IMG/VR virus record: IMGVR_UViG_3300045971_000012
Coordinates: 1-32,938 of that record
Reading direction: 5' to 3' (one strand)
DNA length: 32,938 bases
From: a virus
Part shown: positions 1 to 9,240 of the stretch, piece after piece
Position numbering within the stretch: the stretch's first letter is position 1
Layout of the letters: each line of letters opens with the position of its first letter
The notes under the pieces: model-generated
What the model was told of the DNA's origin: nothing
The model's database searches: none
What the model saw: only the letters and a program-made list of their open reading frames with translations
Position numbers and translations under genes: made by a program

Positions 1-174
1 TCAACCATAACCTCTATCATTGCAGGTAGTTGTTACGAGCATGATGAATCTTACATGAGTTCTCAAGGGAATAAACATTGGAGAGGGTTTATTATGTTAC
101 ATGAAATTAAAGACGGTTCTTTTGATGAAATGTGGGTGTCACTTGACTACATCAACAAACGCTACTCTAAGTAA
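1..174 (+). CDS. Metallophosphoesterase, C-terminal end (partial, cut by window edge)
   Basis: An open frame runs from base 1 to a TAA at 172-174 with no start inside the window, so this is the last 57 codons of a gene beginning outside. The visible residues include GSCYEHDESYMSSQGNKHW, then GFIMLHEIKDGSFDEMW and VSLDYINKRYSK. This resembles the C-terminus of phage calcineurin-like metallophosphoesterases, which end in a Gly-Cys-aromatic stretch, a 'W.RG....H...DG' beta hairpin and a 'VSLDYL' motif. The catalytic metal-binding motifs would lie upstream and are not visible. The 3' 74 bases are overlapped in another frame by the next gene. Assignment is from motif memory only. Confidence 0.6.
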   Translation, partial: STITSIIAGSCYEHDESYMSSQGNKHWRGFIMLHEIKDGSFDEMWVSLDYINKRYSK

Positions 175-547
175 ACTATGTAAAAGCTGTAATACTGTTA
201 AGTATCTAGAATACTTTTCCCCTAATTATAAGGGGTTATATGGACGAGCACAGAAATGTAGAATATGCTCTGCCAAAGTATCAGCAGAAAATAGAAACCC
301 AATAAAAGAAGCTGTCTATAAATACAAAATAACAGAAGAACGTGCTTTAGAACTAAAAGCCCATACTTCATGTTTTATTTGTGGATTACCTAATCGAGAA
401 AATAAAGCTCTTTGTATAGATCATAATCATACTACTGGAAAAGTTAGAGGTATGCTTTGTGATGACTGTAATTTGAGTTTAGGTAAAATGAAAGATAGTA
501 AAGAACTCCTACAAAAAGCAATTGATTATTTAAAACAATATGACTGA
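101..547 (+). CDS. HNH endonuclease, recombination endonuclease VII family
   Basis: Endonuclease VII-type nucleases cut branched DNA, and many phage copies are free-standing homing-type enzymes. The 148-residue product has a CFIC pair at 91-94, the active-site stretch CIDHNHTTGKVRG at about 105-117, and a second pair CDDC at 120-123. This C-x2-C / D-H-N-H / C-x2-C layout is the family's zinc-bound beta-beta-alpha-metal fold. A separate N-terminal set of pairs (C27, C30, C53, C56) looks like an extra zinc finger. The start is uncertain: ATG 101 and ATG 125 both lie inside the upstream metallophosphoesterase frame and neither has a well-placed ribosome-binding site. Its stop overlaps the next gene's ATG by 8 bases. 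Family call is strong; the biological role (resolvase or homing) is inferred. Confidence 0.8.
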   Translation: MKLKTVLLMKCGCHLTTSTNATLSKLCKSCNTVKYLEYFSPNYKGLYGRAQKCRICSAKVSAENRNPIKEAVYKYKITEERALELKAHTSCFICGLPNRENKALCIDHNHTTGKVRGMLCDDCNLSLGKMKDSKELLQKAIDYLKQYD

Positions 548-1125: not shown

Positions 1126-2766
1126 TTGTCAAATGAATTTAGAAACTCCTTCGCAGAAAATGTATTCCGATTCAAGTACGCCCAAGGACCGGGCGATACA
1201 TGGTCTAAGCTCTCTGAAAGGCTTGTCGAGGACGTTGCGGGAACTAGAACTGGAACGACAAGTTCTCTTATGTCAGCAGCAGATCGTGCAGAGCTTACAG
1301 AACACATTCGATCTATGCGCTTCCTACCCGGAGGTCGCTACTTGTACTATGCAGGACGACCCTACAAAGCCTACAATAATTGCTACCTTTTGCGTGCAGA
1401 GGAAGATACTAGGGAAGAATGGAGCAACGTAACATGGCGAGCTATGTCCTGTCTAATGACAGGTGGAGGAATTGGAATTGACTACTCTCGACTTCGAGCG
1501 TCTGGTAAGGCGCTTTCAAGAACTGGAGGAACAGCTTCGGGGCCAATCCCTCTCATGTCAGCAATCAATGAAATTGGACGAAATGTTATGCAGGGTGGCT
1601 CTCGCCGCTCGGCTATCTATGCGTCTCTCAACTGGCAACATGAAGACATTCACCAATTCCTTGGAATCAAGAACTGGTCAGATGTAGTCAAGGCAGAGAA
1701 GCTTAAAGACTTCAATTTCCCCGGCCCTCTAGACATGACCAACATTTCGGTAAACTACGATGACGCTTCCTTGGTTGGTGGATTGGATAGTAACTCAGTA
1801 TTCCTTACAAACGTTCGTCAAGCAATGGAGACAGGGGAACCGGGATTTAGCTTTAACTTTGGCAGTAAACAAAATGAGACATTACGTAATGCTTGCACAG
1901 AGGTTACGTCGGAAGATGATTCAGACGTGTGTAATCTTGGTAGTGTCAACCTTGCTAACATTGATTCTATTGCTCAACTACAGCGAGTTGTCGAGTTGGG
2001 GTCGAAGTTTCTTGTTTGTGGCACCCTCCGCGCTGATCTACCTTACGATAAGGTATATCAAGTTAGGGCAAAGAATCGACGACTTGGATTGGGACTTATG
2101 GGAATCCATGAGTGGCTTCTCAAGCGACACTATTCCTACGAGGTAACCCCTGAACTACATGAATGGCTAAAGGTATATGAATCAGAATCTAAACGAAGTG
2201 CAGACGAACACTGTGACCGCTTCTTTATCAGCCGCCCAGTGGCATATCGAGCAATTGCCCCCACAGGAAGTATCGGTATCCTTGCTGGAACAACTACTGG
2301 AATTGAACCTCTCTTTGCAGTTGCTTATAAACGACGCTTTCTTACAGAGGGGACGAAGTGGAAGTATCAATATGTCGTTGATGGAACGGCTGACCTCCTC
2401 ATCAACAAGTTCGGAGTCAAACCAGATTCCATCCAGTCAGCCATTGATCTAAGTGACAACTATGAAAAACGCATTAAGTTCCAAGCCGATGTACAAGATT
2501 ATATTGACATGTCAATCTCGTCAACCATTAATCTCCCAGAATGGGGGACAGCTAGAAATAACGAAAAAGAAGTTGGAGCATTTGCAGCTACACTTGCAAA
2601 GTATGCTCCACGACTTCGTGGATTTACGTGTTACCCAAATGGCAGTCGAGGAGGTCAACCTTTGACAGCAGTACCATACGAGGAAGCATTGAAACATAAG
2701 GATGTAGTTTACGAAGAGAACGACATTTGTGATATTAGTGGAAAAGGAGGTTCTTGTGGCGTCTGA
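1126..2766 (+). CDS. nrdJ: Ribonucleoside-diphosphate/triphosphate reductase, probably class II (adenosylcobalamin-dependent)
   Basis: Makes deoxyribonucleotides for phage DNA synthesis. The 546-residue chain carries the ten-stranded-barrel core: NNCYLLR with the first redox cysteine C86, the active-site NACTE with N255, radical cysteine C257 and E259, then VCNLGSVNL with the second redox cysteine C269. The phosphate-binding turn APTGSIGILAGTTTGIEPLF is at about 378-397, STINLP at about 466-471, and a C-terminal cysteine pair at C535 and C544 passes reducing equivalents. The 'GTTTGIEPLFA' form, the lack of an ATP-cone, the lack of paired radical-transfer tyrosines at the C-terminus and no small-subunit gene in view favour class II over class I. 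The start is TTG 1126; an in-frame stop lies just upstream at 1111-1113 and no ATG or GTG start intervenes. The chain is short for the family. A small-subunit gene outside the window would overturn the class call. Confidence 0.85.
   Translation: MSNEFRNSFAENVFRFKYAQGPGDTWSKLSERLVEDVAGTRTGTTSSLMSAADRAELTEHIRSMRFLPGGRYLYYAGRPYKAYNNCYLLRAEEDTREEWSNVTWRAMSCLMTGGGIGIDYSRLRASGKALSRTGGTASGPIPLMSAINEIGRNVMQGGSRRSAIYASLNWQHEDIHQFLGIKNWSDVVKAEKLKDFNFPGPLDMTNISVNYDDASLVGGLDSNSVFLTNVRQAMETGEPGFSFNFGSKQNETLRNACTEVTSEDDSDVCNLGSVNLANIDSIAQLQRVVELGSKFLVCGTLRADLPYDKVYQVRAKNRRLGLGLMGIHEWLLKRHYSYEVTPELHEWLKVYESESKRSADEHCDRFFISRPVAYRAIAPTGSIGILAGTTTGIEPLFAVAYKRRFLTEGTKWKYQYVVDGTADLLINKFGVKPDSIQSAIDLSDNYEKRIKFQADVQDYIDMSISSTINLPEWGTARNNEKEVGAFAATLAKYAPRLRGFTCYPNGSRGGQPLTAVPYEEALKHKDVVYEENDICDISGKGGSCGV
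2744..2750 (+). promoter_or_regulatory. Strong Shine-Dalgarno inside the end of the reductase gene
   Basis: AAGGAGG lies inside the reductase 3' end, five bases before GTG 2756. It selects that GTG over the upstream in-frame GTG at 2729 as the start of the zinc-ribbon gene. Confidence 0.75.
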
Positions 2767-3201: not shown

Positions 3202-3616
3202 ACGTCCCTTGGAATTGGGACTTCTCTGAATTGCGTCTTGACGTTATCTCAGGTGGTATGTGCCACTTGTCAAACTCTGCTGCTGCTTCTCTCATTTTAC
3301 CTTGGTTAATAAACCTCAACATAGTGGACCGCCTAAAGGCATTAACACCCACGTTGAAGATGAAGCTACAAAGAGCATCAACTTGATCCTGTCCCAGCAA
3401 CACAACAACATTGTCATCTAGACACTTTTCTGTAATGGCAACATCCTTGCGTAACTGGTCCATAATCTGCTGGTCAGACCAGACTAAACCCTTAACCACT
3501 TCGGGGCCTGTATGACCCACACCAATTGTCCAGATACCTTTAGTATCTTGGTAGGCATTATGGCGTGAGCCTTCTCTAAGCATTAGGAGTTTGAGTCCTG
3601 AGTCTGACATTTTCAT
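3200..3616 (-). CDS. Endolysin, T4/lambdoid-type lysozyme (glycoside hydrolase 24)
   Basis: Cleaves the MurNAc-GlcNAc bond of peptidoglycan to release progeny. The 138-residue chain has the GH24 triad: E15 in LREGSRHNAYQD, D24 eight residues later, and T30 in WTIGVGHTG. FIFNVG and the C-terminal 'TSRRNSEKSQF' also match family signatures. Length is close to the minimal family size. There is no signal peptide or anchor, so export needs a holin. The start ATG overlaps the TGA of the upstream 1875-residue gene (ATGA), making it translationally coupled; ATG 3610 is an alternative. It is the last late gene, far from the holin candidates at about 15.3 and 19.5-20.2 kb. Confidence 0.92.
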   Translation of the reverse strand: MKMSDSGLKLLMLREGSRHNAYQDTKGIWTIGVGHTGPEVVKGLVWSDQQIMDQLRKDVAITEKCLDDNVVVLLGQDQVDALCSFIFNVGVNAFRRSTMLRFINQGKMREAAAEFDKWHIPPEITSRRNSEKSQFQGT

Positions 3617-6600
3617 TTTGGCATATTCCTATAACGCATGATGGATTGCATCACAAGTAGTTTCTTGGCATCGGCAATTTGTTGATCTGACCTAGACATA
3701 TACTGACGAGGGATACCATTGTTAATGGCTTCATCAATACGTTTAGATTCAGGGTCAAGCTTCATGTATGCCATTGTGTAATCAGCCATCTGCTTAGTGT
3801 CACCACGATGGTAGGCACCGAGCAAACCTTCTATATTACCCTGTAAGGCGTTCTTGATTCGCATATCCTCTTGTCCACTGCGATACCAATTCTGCTTAAG
3901 GTTACCCTCATTAGTTGATACAGCATTCCACTTACGCTTGGCTTCATCATCTGCATTACGAGCATAAGGCATAGTCCTAGGGTTGTTCATGTCATTAGGG
4001 TTAATGAACACTTGGTGACCCGGAGTATTGCCTTGCTTGATGTTAGGCAGATACTCTTCCATTGGGCCTTTAGCGCCCGGAAGATTCTTGTATGCAGCTT
4101 CAGTAGCAGAACTCTTGTTAGGATGGATAGCCATCTTACCAATAGAACCCCATTCCTTTGCCTCTTGGGCCATAACAGCGCCGGGGAAATTATTCCCTAG
4201 ATGCTCTGTGTCCAAGATTTGAGGACTAATGTGGGGTGCTATAGCCAGCCCTGTTGCTTCACCAGCAAGACCGTTTGTAGCTACACTCTTAGCAGACATT
4301 TGACGGAATACCTTGGTATCAGGCAAACTATTGATAAGTTTATCCCTGAGGTCAAAGTCCCGTAGAGCAGGAGAGTACAAGTCAGGCTTGAACTTAGATA
4401 CCATGTCCTTGCCAAAGTTAATCAAACCATCTAGTTCCTGCATACCCGGAACGTTCATCATACCTGTACCCAAACCGTAAGCAATCATCAAAGCAGCAAT
4501 AGGTTTAGGGTCACCTCGACCAAGCATACGGAAAGCCGCGTTCAAGGTGTGGTAGGACTGAAACTTGAAGGACTGATAAACATATCCTGCTTGTCCCAAG
4601 GCTCCTAGCTTGTCAACCATCATGGGTCTATCAAACGACTTAAACGAACTCAATGCCCGGTCTGAGTAGATTTCAGCTTCATGGAACAAGGCTTTAGTAT
4701 TGCCATGAAAGGCTCCAGAAGCGTCTAGGTGATGCACAAAGGACATGAACGACATCATACGAGCAATCTGTTCAGGCTTACCAATAGTCCAGCCTAAGCC
4801 TGCTTGTACCTTATCCATTGGAGTGTGCTGACCAACACTACGCGATTCATCAAAGATGTTACGCTTGATGTAGCCAGAGTCTTCCATATATTTCAAAGCC
4901 TCTTGTCCAATCTTAGTCATACCTGACGTGGACACAAATCCTTCAACAGTGTTTGAACCCATCTCATGTGCCATGTGTGCCATGATACCAGCAGTAGCAT
5001 CAGTCATACCAAATGCCATAGTCTTCAAGGCACCAGTAACACCTGTCTTGTAACCACCTTCAGAACTCATTACCATGTGCATCATTGGTCCTGTAACCAT
5101 GAACTGCAAAGGCGTAGCCAATGAGTACATGGGGTTTAGACCAAGGGTTTGCAGGTAAGTCATACCTTTAATGTCACCGACAAAGCGTAGTACTGAGTTA
5201 CGACTAACACCAAACACTTCAGCAATACCATTTTCAATTGGTGCTACAATGTTAATGTCAAGTCCTAGTTCACGGTTGATGATATGTTGTGCCAGAGACA
5301 CAGCATTGGGTTTCATCTCCATGACCTTGGGATCGGATAGTACTTGCTTGGCATTAGCCACAGTTTCCTGTAGGTTGGCCCAACGGATAGCATTCTTCAG
5401 ATAGTCAACCTGAGCCTTAGTACCAGCCTTTGCAGACTCCTCAGGAGTGAGCCAAGGAGTATCACCAGCAAAACCACGTACACCAGCCTTGTGCTCAAAG
5501 TGCTTGCTCTGACCTAGGTTAGAATAACCCTTGGCAGTAGTATAACTCTCCATTGCTTCCTTGATGGCAGCAGTGGTTTCAGGAGCATCCTTGAAGAAGC
5601 CCATCATATCCCTATAAGCGCCAGCAACATCGTGTGGAGCATTGGGGTTACGATTGTTACCCATGTACTTAGGCTTAGTATCCTTGTCGATGTTCAACTC
5701 AGGGAAGTTTTCCTTAAGGTGAGCAATGGCTTGAATATTCTCAGCACGACTAGTTGTACGTACAAACCACACAACATCTTGCTTAGGCTTGTTTGTCTCA
5801 GGGTCCATAACCACCTTACCACTAGCATCCTTGCGGTCTTTAGTGACAATGGTGTGGTAATCTCCAGACCAGCGTGACGAGTAGTAATAGTCATCACGAG
5901 ACAAAGGCTTCTCACCCATCTTTACCAACTGTTCATTCTGCAAGGTATAAGCTGATTCATAAGCCTTACGTTGCATCTTGTAGGCAGCTAGTTGCTTATC
6001 ATCCATACCAGCAGCACGTAGTTGATCGTCGGTAAAAGCTTTTCCATTCTTCTGCTCACGCTGCAACACACCATCATGGGTAACCATTTCCTCAGGGCTA
6101 AGATGGTTAATCATCTTAGTCAAAGGAACAACCATCTGAGAAATCTGGTAGTTGGTACGAGCTAGTCCATTGTTCAGGAAGTTCTGAACTCCACGGATAA
6201 CAGGTTCTTCTTTGAACTTGAGTGCAGCCATGTTAAGACCTGATTGCACTGACTCAGAAATACCACCATACTTAATGGAACGCTTTGTGAAGGGAATCTT
6301 GAAGGTTGCATCTGGGTTCAGAGGAATGTCTGTAGAACCCGGAGCAGTAGCCCTAGCAATCACATCAGAAGGAGCAACTACCTTACCAATAGCATCTTCT
6401 GCTTGTTTAGCAGAGGTAAAGCTATTAGCCAGATATTCCTTAGAAGCTGTGTTAGGATCGAAAGCCTTCTTACCAAAAGCTGCAGCAGCATCAGTAAGGG
6501 TCTTCATGGCACCATCCAACGTATCCCGCATTGCTTTGGGAAGTGGGAGGCCACCATGTAGTTCAGTTACGCCATTAGCATCAGCACCAAACAAGTTAGC

Positions 6601-9240
6601 TTCTTTAGCCTTAGCAGTATTGACTTCATCCCCAACCATAGGGTGAACTTCACCTTCTGTAGGCTTGTAGATAGATTGGAAGTTATCAGGATTCCAAGTT
6701 ACAAAGGAAGTAGGATGTTGATAAGTATCAGCCCTACCTTTACCTCTACCTATTACTTCTGACCTAATAGACTCAGCAGAATTCTTGTAGAAGAATCCAT
6801 CAATGTCAGCCTTCTTAAGAACATTAGTCAAAGCTGCATTACGGGCATCATCGCCTATAGCGTTCTCAACGTAGTTACGCATGGACTTAATATTTTCAGG
6901 ACTAAATCCCTTATCCCCAAGTGCCTTATTAAGTACGTCAATGAAACGACGATCATTCATTAAAGAACGAGGATTCCATCCACCCATATCTACAGGAATA
7001 AAAGGATAGTTACCCTTCTTAATGGCTACAGGATGGATTTGAGCATTTACTTTTGTATTTTCAGGACGATGGATTTCTTTAGGAAGGGTATTATATCCAC
7101 CAGAAACTCTAGCAAAAGGCTGGTCCCGTAATGGTACTGATCCTCTAGCTGAGTTGGTGATAAAAATGTGTGGACTTGTGGTAAAGCCAGCATGAAAACC
7201 TTCTGATTTACCGCCTATCTCACCCTTAATATCTTTTGTCGTTCCATGTAACATAACCAAAGGAGTTCCATCCCCATTGGTCATCCACTTGTCTTTACTG
7301 AAACGATTCTTCAACCAAGGTTGATCCGTAAGTTTAGAAAGTGCCGAAGTAAGTTTACGGTAGCCTTCTTTGAATACTTGAGGATCAATGGCTCCGCCTT
7401 GCTTACTACGACTTACGGATTTTTTTGCTGCACCACCTGTCTTACCTGAGAAGCGTTCATTCACTGCTTTGACAGCAGCAGCACGTTCCTTAGAGCCAGC
7501 CGGATGGCTAATCTCTTGCAAGGCATGTTGCTTGGCAATGTTAGCAAGAGCCTTATCACGTTTAGCCTTATCCTTAGCAAGAGCTTCTGCTTCAGCACGT
7601 AGCTTGGCAGCATCCTGAGCAGCTTTGGTTGTCTCAGCAGTGTTAGATTCATTACGTTTAGCAATGGCTTCGTGTGCGTCAGCTTGAGCTTGACGAGTAC
7701 GAACCTCAGACTCAGTGTGCTGATCGCGCAGCTTCTGAATCATCTCCTCATTAGCAGCACGTTGTTCAACTATGCGCTGCTTTTCAGCAGCTAGTTCAGC
7801 CTTGGCTTCAATGGCTACTTGTTTCTTGGACTTAGTAGGAGCTTCCTCTTGCCTACGGCGTAACTCAGCTTCAGCAGCCAAACGAGCAGTCTTAGGACCA
7901 CCTTCAGCGGTCAAGGCACGTATGCCCTCATGCTGACTCTTAACACCACTCATAGAGTCATCTATGGCCTTCTGACGGGCTTCTACAGAAGCTTGTGAAG
8001 CTTCCAATTTAGCCTGTTCATCCATAGCCCTAGCGTGGGTTTCCTCTAGGTGTGTACGGTGCTGTTCTTCAGCAGCAACGTGATCTAGGTGAGCCTTAGC
8101 TGCCTCAGAAGGAGTGGACCTTTCGTTAAGAGCTTGAGCCTTAGCAGCAGCATCTTGTGCAGCATAACCTTGGTCAGCATTGGGGATGTTAGCAGCTTCC
8201 CAATCTGCTCTACGAGCAGCCAAATCCTGAGCGATCTTGTCATGTTCAGCATTACGAGCATCAATTACATCTTGTGCAGTAAAGGCTTTAGACGAGCTTA
8301 CAGGTTTAGTAAGAGAATCAGCAACATTACCCATAGGGGTAGAAGGGTCAATACCTGCTTCACCGGGTTCAGCACCTAGTTGACGGGTCATCCGTTCCAT
8401 TGGAGTTTCTTTAGCAAGACCTTCCAATGCAGGATTAACCTGACCTTCATCACCAATACGATTGAATGCTGATTGACGAGCCAACTCCTGCTCACGCAGG
8501 GCTTGCTCATAAGCCAGCTTACTCTTGTCCAGACTTGGACGAGTATCTACCAAAGGTTCACCAGCAGGAGCTATAACAGGCTCTTCCTTAGTGTGAGCAG
8601 CATCTAGAGCATCTAGGATAGCGTTACCAGAAGCCTTAGGCTTAACATCTGCTGCCTTAGCAGGAGTCTTATGTCCCAACATGGGAGTAAGCATAGACAG
8701 GTCAGGAGCAGCTTGCATCAAGCCAGAAGCTACACCCCCTAGATGGGGTTCTGTAGCTACACTTTCAGGCATGAAGGGAATAGCCCTAAGAGTGTTCTGG
8801 ATGTTCTGTGGGTCTTTAGCGTACTCTGTAGCACCCAGCAAGAAGTCACCAATACCCTTTTGAATACGTTGACCCGAAACAGTTTGTGGAGCTAGCGCAG
8901 AATCAGTAGCTTTTGCAAAGTTCTGTGCCCATCTATTTCCAGTTTCAGCAGCAGTTTGTCCGGGTGTCAAAGCACCTTTAATACCACCAGCAGCCTTAGC
9001 AGCTACACCGCCAAGAGCTTGAGCTACACCAGTAGTCCCTGTTTCCAGAATACCTAGGGGTAAGTCCCAATCTACACCCACAGGCATTGGGGGCAATGGC
9101 GCAGCAGGAGGAGTTGGAGCAGAAGGTTGGGTTGGAGTATCGGATTGGCCCAGATGTGTCTTTATCTTGGCAATAGCTTCATCATTGGATAAGCCATCAG
9201 GCAAATCGTAATGTTGACCTTGATATTGGTAAATGGGCAT
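3613..9240 (-). CDS. Giant internal virion protein / polyvalent protein with ADP-ribosyltransferase-like domain
   Basis: A 1875-residue protein, by far the largest product, placed where podoviruses encode ejected internal proteins. It opens with a small module (YQYQGQHYDLPDG..., 1-32) common to phage internal proteins, then a proline-rich linker, Gly/Ala-rich hydrophobic stretches (about 60-95) and a long Ala/Glu/Lys/Gln coiled coil (about 320-597). Residues about 640-860 look like an ART-PolyVal domain: LVMLHGTTKD with H665-G666-T667, the strand IHPVAIKKGNYPFIPVD, ADIDGFFYKN, and SFVTWNPDNFQSIY around W849. The remaining kilobase-scale C-terminal part resembles large polyvalent-protein-associated regions, with hydrophobic segments around 1360-1610. 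RBS AAGGA precedes the ATG. The catalytic third-motif acid is not obvious, so ART activity is inferred. Likely injected with the DNA. Confidence 0.75.
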   Translation of the reverse strand: MPIYQYQGQHYDLPDGLSNDEAIAKIKTHLGQSDTPTQPSAPTPPAAPLPPMPVGVDWDLPLGILETGTTGVAQALGGVAAKAAGGIKGALTPGQTAAETGNRWAQNFAKATDSALAPQTVSGQRIQKGIGDFLLGATEYAKDPQNIQNTLRAIPFMPESVATEPHLGGVASGLMQAAPDLSMLTPMLGHKTPAKAADVKPKASGNAILDALDAAHTKEEPVIAPAGEPLVDTRPSLDKSKLAYEQALREQELARQSAFNRIGDEGQVNPALEGLAKETPMERMTRQLGAEPGEAGIDPSTPMGNVADSLTKPVSSSKAFTAQDVIDARNAEHDKIAQDLAARRADWEAANIPNADQGYAAQDAAAKAQALNERSTPSEAAKAHLDHVAAEEQHRTHLEETHARAMDEQAKLEASQASVEARQKAIDDSMSGVKSQHEGIRALTAEGGPKTARLAAEAELRRRQEEAPTKSKKQVAIEAKAELAAEKQRIVEQRAANEEMIQKLRDQHTESEVRTRQAQADAHEAIAKRNESNTAETTKAAQDAAKLRAEAEALAKDKAKRDKALANIAKQHALQEISHPAGSKERAAAVKAVNERFSGKTGGAAKKSVSRSKQGGAIDPQVFKEGYRKLTSALSKLTDQPWLKNRFSKDKWMTNGDGTPLVMLHGTTKDIKGEIGGKSEGFHAGFTTSPHIFITNSARGSVPLRDQPFARVSGGYNTLPKEIHRPENTKVNAQIHPVAIKKGNYPFIPVDMGGWNPRSLMNDRRFIDVLNKALGDKGFSPENIKSMRNYVENAIGDDARNAALTNVLKKADIDGFFYKNSAESIRSEVIGRGKGRADTYQHPTSFVTWNPDNFQSIYKPTEGEVHPMVGDEVNTAKAKEANLFGADANGVTELHGGLPLPKAMRDTLDGAMKTLTDAAAAFGKKAFDPNTASKEYLANSFTSAKQAEDAIGKVVAPSDVIARATAPGSTDIPLNPDATFKIPFTKRSIKYGGISESVQSGLNMAALKFKEEPVIRGVQNFLNNGLARTNYQISQMVVPLTKMINHLSPEEMVTHDGVLQREQKNGKAFTDDQLRAAGMDDKQLAAYKMQRKAYESAYTLQNEQLVKMGEKPLSRDDYYYSSRWSGDYHTIVTKDRKDASGKVVMDPETNKPKQDVVWFVRTTSRAENIQAIAHLKENFPELNIDKDTKPKYMGNNRNPNAPHDVAGAYRDMMGFFKDAPETTAAIKEAMESYTTAKGYSNLGQSKHFEHKAGVRGFAGDTPWLTPEESAKAGTKAQVDYLKNAIRWANLQETVANAKQVLSDPKVMEMKPNAVSLAQHIINRELGLDINIVAPIENGIAEVFGVSRNSVLRFVGDIKGMTYLQTLGLNPMYSLATPLQFMVTGPMMHMVMSSEGGYKTGVTGALKTMAFGMTDATAGIMAHMAHEMGSNTVEGFVSTSGMTKIGQEALKYMEDSGYIKRNIFDESRSVGQHTPMDKVQAGLGWTIGKPEQIARMMSFMSFVHHLDASGAFHGNTKALFHEAEIYSDRALSSFKSFDRPMMVDKLGALGQAGYVYQSFKFQSYHTLNAAFRMLGRGDPKPIAALMIAYGLGTGMMNVPGMQELDGLINFGKDMVSKFKPDLYSPALRDFDLRDKLINSLPDTKVFRQMSAKSVATNGLAGEATGLAIAPHISPQILDTEHLGNNFPGAVMAQEAKEWGSIGKMAIHPNKSSATEAAYKNLPGAKGPMEEYLPNIKQGNTPGHQVFINPNDMNNPRTMPYARNADDEAKRKWNAVSTNEGNLKQNWYRSGQEDMRIKNALQGNIEGLLGAYHRGDTKQMADYTMAYMKLDPESKRIDEAINNGIPRQYMSRSDQQIADAKKLLVMQSIMRYRNMPK

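What the first reader, a model, noticed from the sequence alone, without database searches (positions are those of the whole stretch)
6660..7320. ADP-ribosyltransferase-like domain embedded in a giant ejected virion protein
Seen: within the 1875-residue protein, LVMLHGTTKD (H665-G666-T667), a strand IHPVAIKKGNYPFIPVD, ADIDGFFYKN and the closing SFVTWNPDNFQSIY occur in the order and spacing of the ART-PolyVal family. Known: polyvalent proteins are multi-domain phage or plasmid proteins delivered with the DNA, some carrying ART effectors. Inference: the phage may inject an ADP-ribosylating effector at the start of infection. The usual catalytic acidic residue of motif three is not obvious, so it may be inactive or use a variant triad.
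Basis: partly seen in the sequence, partly recalled or inferred. Interest (0 to 1): 0.7.

Follow-up and report, generated by a model that had tools for sequence, protein, structure and literature searches.

The report
Divergent ADP-ribosyltransferase cassette in phage protein
A very large protein of an uncultured tailed phage, probably one it injects into bacteria, carries a swappable domain related to enzymes that tag proteins with ADP-ribose; the usual catalytic acid is missing, so whether it still works as an enzyme must be tested.

Summary
The finding is real. Residues ~644-862 of the 1875-aa protein (window 6655-7311, minus strand) form a divergent member of the ART-PolyVal ADP-ribosyltransferase family. 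Pfam does not see it (0 hits). A profile of 24 relatives that excludes the window scores it at 33.8 bits; the best of 5,000 shuffles reaches 10.7. A predicted structure (pTM 0.68) matches known ART folds, all at modest Z; first, tied with several toxins, is an ART-like domain in the solved pre-ejectosome of cyanophage A4. The third-motif acid is absent (Thr844), and also in its two closest relatives (Thr, Lys). H665, H683, N820, E823 and S845 are conserved and dN/dS is low, so the domain is maintained: a variant active site or a binding/structural domain. The domain is a cassette: L214 (with ART) and L213 (without) are 89% identical directly after it. It occurs in 5 of 22 sampled family members, in two ART subtypes, in a slot often bordered by a Q(G/R)G motif. 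Virion packaging, ejection and enzymatic activity are inferred, not shown. It is a new variant of a known kind (polyvalent-protein ART).

The parts
3613..9240 (-). 1875-aa putative ejection / polyvalent protein that carries the ART domain
   Evidence: same position in the late-gene block as the 1190-aa homologue of Alcaligenes phage vB_Af_QDWS535
6655..7311 (-). Divergent ART-PolyVal domain, residues 644-862
7246..7248 (-). H665, strand-1 catalytic-type His (LHGT); invariant in 39 of 39 aligned relatives
7186..7200 (-). GFHAG, residues 681-685; H683 stands at the family's strand-2 aromatic position (His in 22, Tyr in 9 of 39)
6976..6990 (-). DMGGW, residues 751-755, the D-x-G-x-W motif of the HFGT subfamily
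6772..6801 (-). DGFFYKNSAE, residues 814-823; N820 and E823 conserved in the subfamily
6694..6711 (-). TSFVTW, residues 844-849, last catalytic strand; the acid is replaced by T844, S845 conserved
7387..7407 (-). SKQGGAI, residues 612-618, the family's Q(G/R)G motif at the N-terminal border of the cassette slot
3616..6216 (-). C-terminal ejection-protein region, residues 1009-1875; 4 of 7 family members match NCBIfam NF032893 (tail-700, PLxRFG), the window sequence itself does not
8986..9240 (-). N-terminal module (MPIYQYQGQHYDLPDGLS...), shared with otherwise different proteins in L004 and L005
3200..3616 (-). Phage lysozyme gene immediately downstream; anchor used to collect relatives

Best explanation
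The region is an ART-fold domain of the ART-PolyVal family ('HFGT' branch), carried as an exchangeable cassette inside a podovirus-type ejection protein. Most likely mechanism: the protein is packaged with the DNA and ejected at the start of infection, and the domain then binds NAD+ and mono-ADP-ribosylates a host (or defence) target, in the manner of phage T4 Alt. Its active site is a variant: H665 and H683 take the His and Tyr positions of H-Y-[D/E] enzymes, and the last-strand acid is replaced by T844/S845, so catalysis would be substrate-assisted or use the conserved E823. Shown here: family, fold (by prediction), cassette presence/absence, conservation of the pocket-motif residues. Inferred: packaging, ejection, NAD+ binding, catalysis, target.
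For: Profile without the window: 33.8 bits on the segment, best of 5,000 shuffles 10.7. hhalign 95.8% for the window alone, 98.2% for window+L214+L218. Seven of ten HFGT-type relatives scanned exceed Pfam's cut-off for PF18760 by far and one (L195) just; two are below it. AF2 pTM 0.68, core pLDDT mostly 80-93. All nine PDB chains with Z 5 or more are ART-superfamily structures or, for the top one (9k3a_B 1418-1600, cyanophage A4 pre-ejectosome), read LYHGT...GTYF...LVINP at the matched place. BFVD hits include several ART-PolyVal-named proteins. Pocket-motif residues conserved in L214 and L218; dN/dS about 0.3, with dS 1.5. L214/L213 and L227/L229 show cassette gain/loss or exchange. Nine human class-2 ARTDs lack the catalytic Glu and ARTD10 acts by substrate-assisted catalysis (PMC3508985). 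ART-PolyVal triad H-Y-D and the T4 Alt model: PMC5512222.
Against: No acid at the catalytic position of the last strand in the window (T), L214 (T) and L218 (K). No Pfam, NCBIfam or PHROG match for the window domain. Z-scores are modest (at most 5.6) and plain Foldseek against the PDB gives no significant hit. Most family members lack any ART (17 of 22), so it is dispensable. The model of the C-terminal region is too poor (pLDDT 47) to test the ejectosome role. No proteomics, no biochemistry.
Confidence: 0.55

Rival explanations
1. A catalytically dead ART-fold domain kept for binding (NAD+, ADP-ribose, protein or nucleic acid) or as a structural element of the ejectosome.
For: The last-strand acid is missing throughout the window clade (T/T/K). 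The A4 pre-ejectosome protein also has an ART-like domain with no acid directly before its last strand (GDTTLVINP), resolved inside the virion. dN/dS about 0.3 fits binding as well as catalysis.
Against: Both histidines, N820, E823 and the SFVTW strand, i.e. motif residues, are the best conserved part. A purely structural element would not be expected to come and go between phages that are 89% identical next to it.
Confidence: 0.33
2. An active NADase (NAD+ depletion) rather than a protein-modifying enzyme.
For: ART folds without a canonical acceptor-selecting acid can hydrolyse NAD+ (general knowledge); the pocket residues are conserved.
Against: NAD+ depletion would also harm the infecting phage early on; the close family is predicted to modify proteins (PMC5512222).
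Confidence: 0.08
3. The resemblance to ART-PolyVal is chance or convergent motif similarity in a helical virion protein.
For: No library match for the single sequence.
Against: Shuffle and control-ORF tests, profile-profile comparison, fold match and conservation of the same motifs in L214 and L218.
Confidence: 0.02

Closest known systems
ART-PolyVal (Pfam PF18760), ARTs of phage polyvalent proteins (Iyer et al. 2017, PMC5512222)
   Same: Strand-1 HG[TS], glycine-led strand 2, [N/G]xP strand 3, DGxxY strand, closing strand with a downstream K/Q-S; sits in a giant protein among late genes; ART fold
   Different: Below detection by Pfam; His instead of Tyr on strand 2; no Asp/Glu on the last strand; large insertions after strand 2 and before the last strand
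'HFGT' branch of ART-PolyVal (L158, L161, L164, L176, L196 and others; label coined here)
   Same: G-x-H on strand 2, D-x-G-x-W/F, GYDGIVYLN-x-x-E, S before the last strand; insertion before the last strand
   Different: Most branch members have D-S-[YW] at the last strand; the window clade has [TK]-S-F
Cyanophage A4 (Anabaena phage A-4L) gp27, PDB 9k3a chain B, residues 1418-1600
   Same: ART-like domain in a very large protein of a podophage pre-ejectosome; best-ranked solved match (Z 5.6, tied with other ARTs)
   Different: 15% identity; elsewhere unrelated to the window protein by profile; its ART lies near the C-terminus; Pfam does not call it either. The paper (PMID 40163721) was not held, so the authors' view of this domain is unknown to me
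Phage T4 Alt
   Same: Model for a head-packaged, injected ART that acts at once on the host
   Different: Different ART clade (R-S-E), stand-alone protein (PMC5512222)
Roseovarius Plymouth podovirus 1 vRNAP (CBX87992.1) ART
   Same: Prototype ART-PolyVal inside a giant podovirus virion protein (found here at residues 1023-1096 by Pfam)
   Different: Carried by an N4-type RNA polymerase, absent from the window protein

Membership tests
ART-PolyVal (PF18760) | Significant sequence-profile relationship to the family | tested here: met
   Not by the Pfam model itself, but by a profile built from relatives, most of which pass PF18760
ART-PolyVal (PF18760) | ART fold (split beta-sheet) | tested here: met
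   Predicted model only: pTM 0.68; VIA-align matches are dominated by ARTs at Z 4-5.6; BFVD matches include ART-PolyVal-like proteins
ART-PolyVal (PF18760) | Catalytic His in strand 1 | tested here: met
   H665, 39 of 39
ART-PolyVal (PF18760) | Catalytic Tyr in strand 2 | tested here: not met
   H683 instead; His is the commonest residue there in the sampled set (22 of 39), which holds many HFGT-branch members
ART-PolyVal (PF18760) | Catalytic Asp in strand 5 | tested here: not met
   T844; Asp in 19 of 39 relatives; T and K in the closest two. Hence filed as a divergent homologue, not as a proven ART enzyme
Phage polyvalent protein | Several disparate domains in one polypeptide | tested here: inconclusive
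   ART domain plus N-terminal module and C-terminal ejection region; no second enzymatic domain found
Phage polyvalent protein | Encoded among virion genes | tested here: met
   Between tail spike/fibre genes and lysozyme
Phage polyvalent protein | Packaged and injected with the DNA | not testable with these tools
   Needs virion proteomics and a translocation assay
tail-700 / PLxRFG (NF032893) | Match to the NCBIfam model | tested here: inconclusive
   4 of 7 members of the C-terminal family match (best 5.2e-16), the window sequence itself does not
T4 Alt-type ART | R-S-E active site | tested here: not met
   Strand 1 has H665 in an HGT motif

The most novel reading that the evidence does not exclude
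Podovirus-type ejection proteins of this family hold a dedicated effector slot just before the C-terminal ejection domain, bordered by Q(G/R)G motifs. Cassettes (two kinds of ART, or other domains) are swapped there, and the motif is a processing site that frees the effector after ejection; the ART cassette of the window uses an acid-less H-H active site.
Probability: 0.18. Interest if true: 0.7.

Novelty: new variant of a known kind. Interest (0 to 1): 0.47.

Why it matters
It shows that injected-effector ARTs of podophages extend beyond what Pfam detects, and that they move in and out of one slot of an ejection protein between closely related phages. If active, the clade would be a natural set for asking how an ART works with His in place of Tyr and no acid, and what a phage gains by carrying it. 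The near-identical L213/L214 pair makes the effect of the cassette directly testable.

Tried and rejected
Single-sequence Pfam, NCBIfam and PHROG scans of the protein: nothing for the ART region. tblastn of the domain against phages and plasmids: only chance hits; the Photobacterium phage PDCC-1 match was inspected and is unrelated. Direct viral-contig scan with the domain: nothing; relatives came only through the neighbouring lysozyme. Genome-contig scan for prophage relatives of the C-terminus: nothing. hhalign against alignment A4 gave 99.8% but that alignment contains the query, so it is discarded. Plain Foldseek against PDB: no hit below E 0.15; ARTs appear only in the VIA-align second look. 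AF2 of the C-terminal 955 aa: pLDDT 47, not used. The Q(G/R)G motif as a general mark of ART-bearing polyvalent proteins: rejected, 0 in 131 other ART-bearing ORFs; it was also not found in any other protein of the window, including the capsid protein. The Q(G/R)G pattern was written after seeing the sequences, so its enrichment is partly post hoc. The A4 structure paper (PMC12002296) was not held.

Full report
WHAT IS THERE. The window is an uncultured virus record of 32,938 bases. Genes run on the minus strand: terminase, portal, major capsid protein, tail genes, tail spike/fibre-like proteins, several small genes, the 1875-aa protein (3613-9240) and a lysozyme. The order and several proteins match Alcaligenes phage vB_Af_QDWS535, whose 1190-aa protein at the same place is a homologue over the C-terminal half (25-26% identity) and lacks the domain in question.

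IS IT AN ART? The window sequence alone gives no Pfam, PHROG or NCBIfam match, and a direct search with PF18760 finds nothing. I therefore built the family from real members: starting from a crAss-like phage ART (L017) I collected relatives from genomes and viral contigs. A first profile already placed the window domain at 653-852. Among the relatives is a branch with G-x-H-F-G-T on strand 2, D-x-G-x-[WF] and YLN-x-x-E, here called HFGT; eight of the ten relatives scanned exceed Pfam's cut-off for ART-PolyVal, two (L139, L080) fall just short. A profile of 24 sequences, mostly of this branch and without the window, scores the window segment at 33.8 bits against a maximum of 10.7 in 5,000 shuffles; in 251 control ORFs only the window and the published vRNAP ART stand out. 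hhalign gives 95.8% for the single sequence and 98.2% for the window with its two closest relatives.

FOLD. AlphaFold2 with 40 sequences gives pTM 0.68, with core blocks mostly at pLDDT 80-93 and poorly modelled loops. The VIA-align second look lists, at Z 4-5.6, Albireti toxin, cholix, exotoxin A, diphtheria toxin, Tpt1/KptA, tankyrase, PARPs, NatT and MbcT, all of the ART superfamily or its known relatives, with some short helical matches (Nipah/Hendra P protein) mixed in from Z 4.8 down. These Z values are modest and rows within 1 are tied. First, but tied, is 9k3a_B residues 1418-1600, from the pre-ejectosome of cyanophage A4. This chain is identical to Anabaena phage A-4L gp27, and the matched stretch reads LYHGT...GSGTYF...TTLVINP, an ART-like sequence that Pfam does not call. 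Plain Foldseek against the PDB gave nothing significant; against predicted viral structures it gave 21 hits at E 0.001 or better, some of them named ART-PolyVal-like.

ACTIVE SITE. Iyer et al. give the family triad as His (strand 1), Tyr (strand 2), Asp (strand 5) (PMC5512222). In the window: H665 is invariant (39/39); H683 is at the strand-2 position (His 22, Tyr 9 of 39); the last-strand position is T844 (Asp in 19 of 39), followed by S845 (Ser in 24 of 39). By a regular-expression count, 36 of 84 family members have no acid at either of these two positions, though misplacement of the pattern may inflate this. Across 12 aligned members the invariant residues are P660, H665, G681, H683, D751, G753, G815, Y818, N820, E823 and S845. 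So the acid is lost, but the rest of the motif set is kept. Lack of the acid does not prove inactivity: nine human class-2 ARTDs lack the catalytic glutamate and ARTD10 uses substrate-assisted catalysis (PMC3508985).

CLOSE RELATIVES AND CASSETTE BEHAVIOUR. Anchoring on the lysozyme gene gave further members of the same ejection-protein family. L214 and L218 carry the same ART (about 45-49% and 37% identity to the window domain), with T and K at the acid position. L227 and L228 carry a different ART-PolyVal that passes the Pfam cut-off. Of the 22 family members examined, 5 carry an ART: window, L214, L218, L227, L228; some of the 22 are near duplicates or cut at the N-terminus, so this is a rough rate. 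L214 and L213 are 89% identical over 890 aa directly after the slot and 51% before it, while 295 aa with the ART are present only in L214. L227 and L229 are 86% identical after the slot, with an ART in L227 and another sequence in L229. dN/dS between window and L214 is about 0.3 (dN 0.45, dS 1.53; dS is close to saturation), which speaks for selection to keep the domain.

BORDERS. A motif [KRS][KRSGN]Q[GRK]G[AGKV][VILA] occurs 17 times in the parts N-terminal of the C-terminal domain in 18 members (12 of them with at least one), against 0.07 expected from shuffles, often directly before the ART and again after it or before the C-terminal domain. It is absent from 131 other ART-bearing ORFs. 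The pattern was defined after inspection and the members are related, so the enrichment is not an independent test. It may be a processing site, a linker or simply an inherited stretch.

MECHANISM. Best reading: a domain delivered with the DNA that modifies a host target early on, after the model of T4 Alt, with a variant active site. Steps shown: family, fold (by prediction), cassette gain/loss, conservation. Steps inferred: packaging, ejection, NAD+ use, target. Main rival: a dead ART fold kept for binding or structure in the ejectosome; the ART-like domain resolved in the A4 pre-ejectosome shows that such folds can be part of the packaged machine. I put 0.55 on an active transferase, 0.33 on the dead-domain rival.

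NOVELTY. ARTs in phage polyvalent proteins are known since 2017. New here are a Pfam-invisible clade with H-H and no acid, its place in an ejection protein whose family is related to tail-700/PLxRFG, and the clean cassette gain/loss. Hence 'new variant of a known kind'.

Noticed in passing
L214 residues 586-880 versus L213 residues 582-584: Clean presence/absence of a 295-aa ART cassette between two phage proteins that are 89% identical directly after it.
   Followed up: partly
window 7387-7407 and related proteins: Recurrent Q(G/R)G(A/G/K/V) motif at domain borders of the ejection-protein family, absent from other ART-bearing giant ORFs; possible processing site.
   Followed up: partly
L211 20116-25269 (-), Anabaena phage A-4L gp27, residues about 1420-1600: ART-like sequence (LYHGT...GTYF...LVINP) in a protein solved in the A4 pre-ejectosome (9k3a_B); not recognised by Pfam and with no acid directly before the last strand.
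   Followed up: partly
L229 residues about 690-845: The slot that holds an ART in L227 holds a different sequence here, ending ...KSIGGKPVIDAQGHTWLEVPV...; no Pfam family beyond weak coiled-coil matches.
   Followed up: no
window 8986-9240, L004 7519-, L005 3919-: The first ~85 residues (MP[IV]YQYQGQHYxLPDGLS...) are shared by proteins that otherwise differ; possibly a packaging or assembly signal.
   Followed up: no
window 1126-2766 (+): Ribonucleotide reductase large subunit (PF02867, with a weak match to the B12-dependent insertion domain); in relative L003 a LAGLIDADG-like ORF lies beside the reductase gene.
   Followed up: no
window 101-547 (+): Recombination endonuclease VII family protein (PF02945).
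   Followed up: no
L004 7519-8499 (+) and 8459-9721 (-): The contig carries two opposed, near-identical stretches of an ejection-protein gene, possibly an assembly artefact.
   Followed up: no
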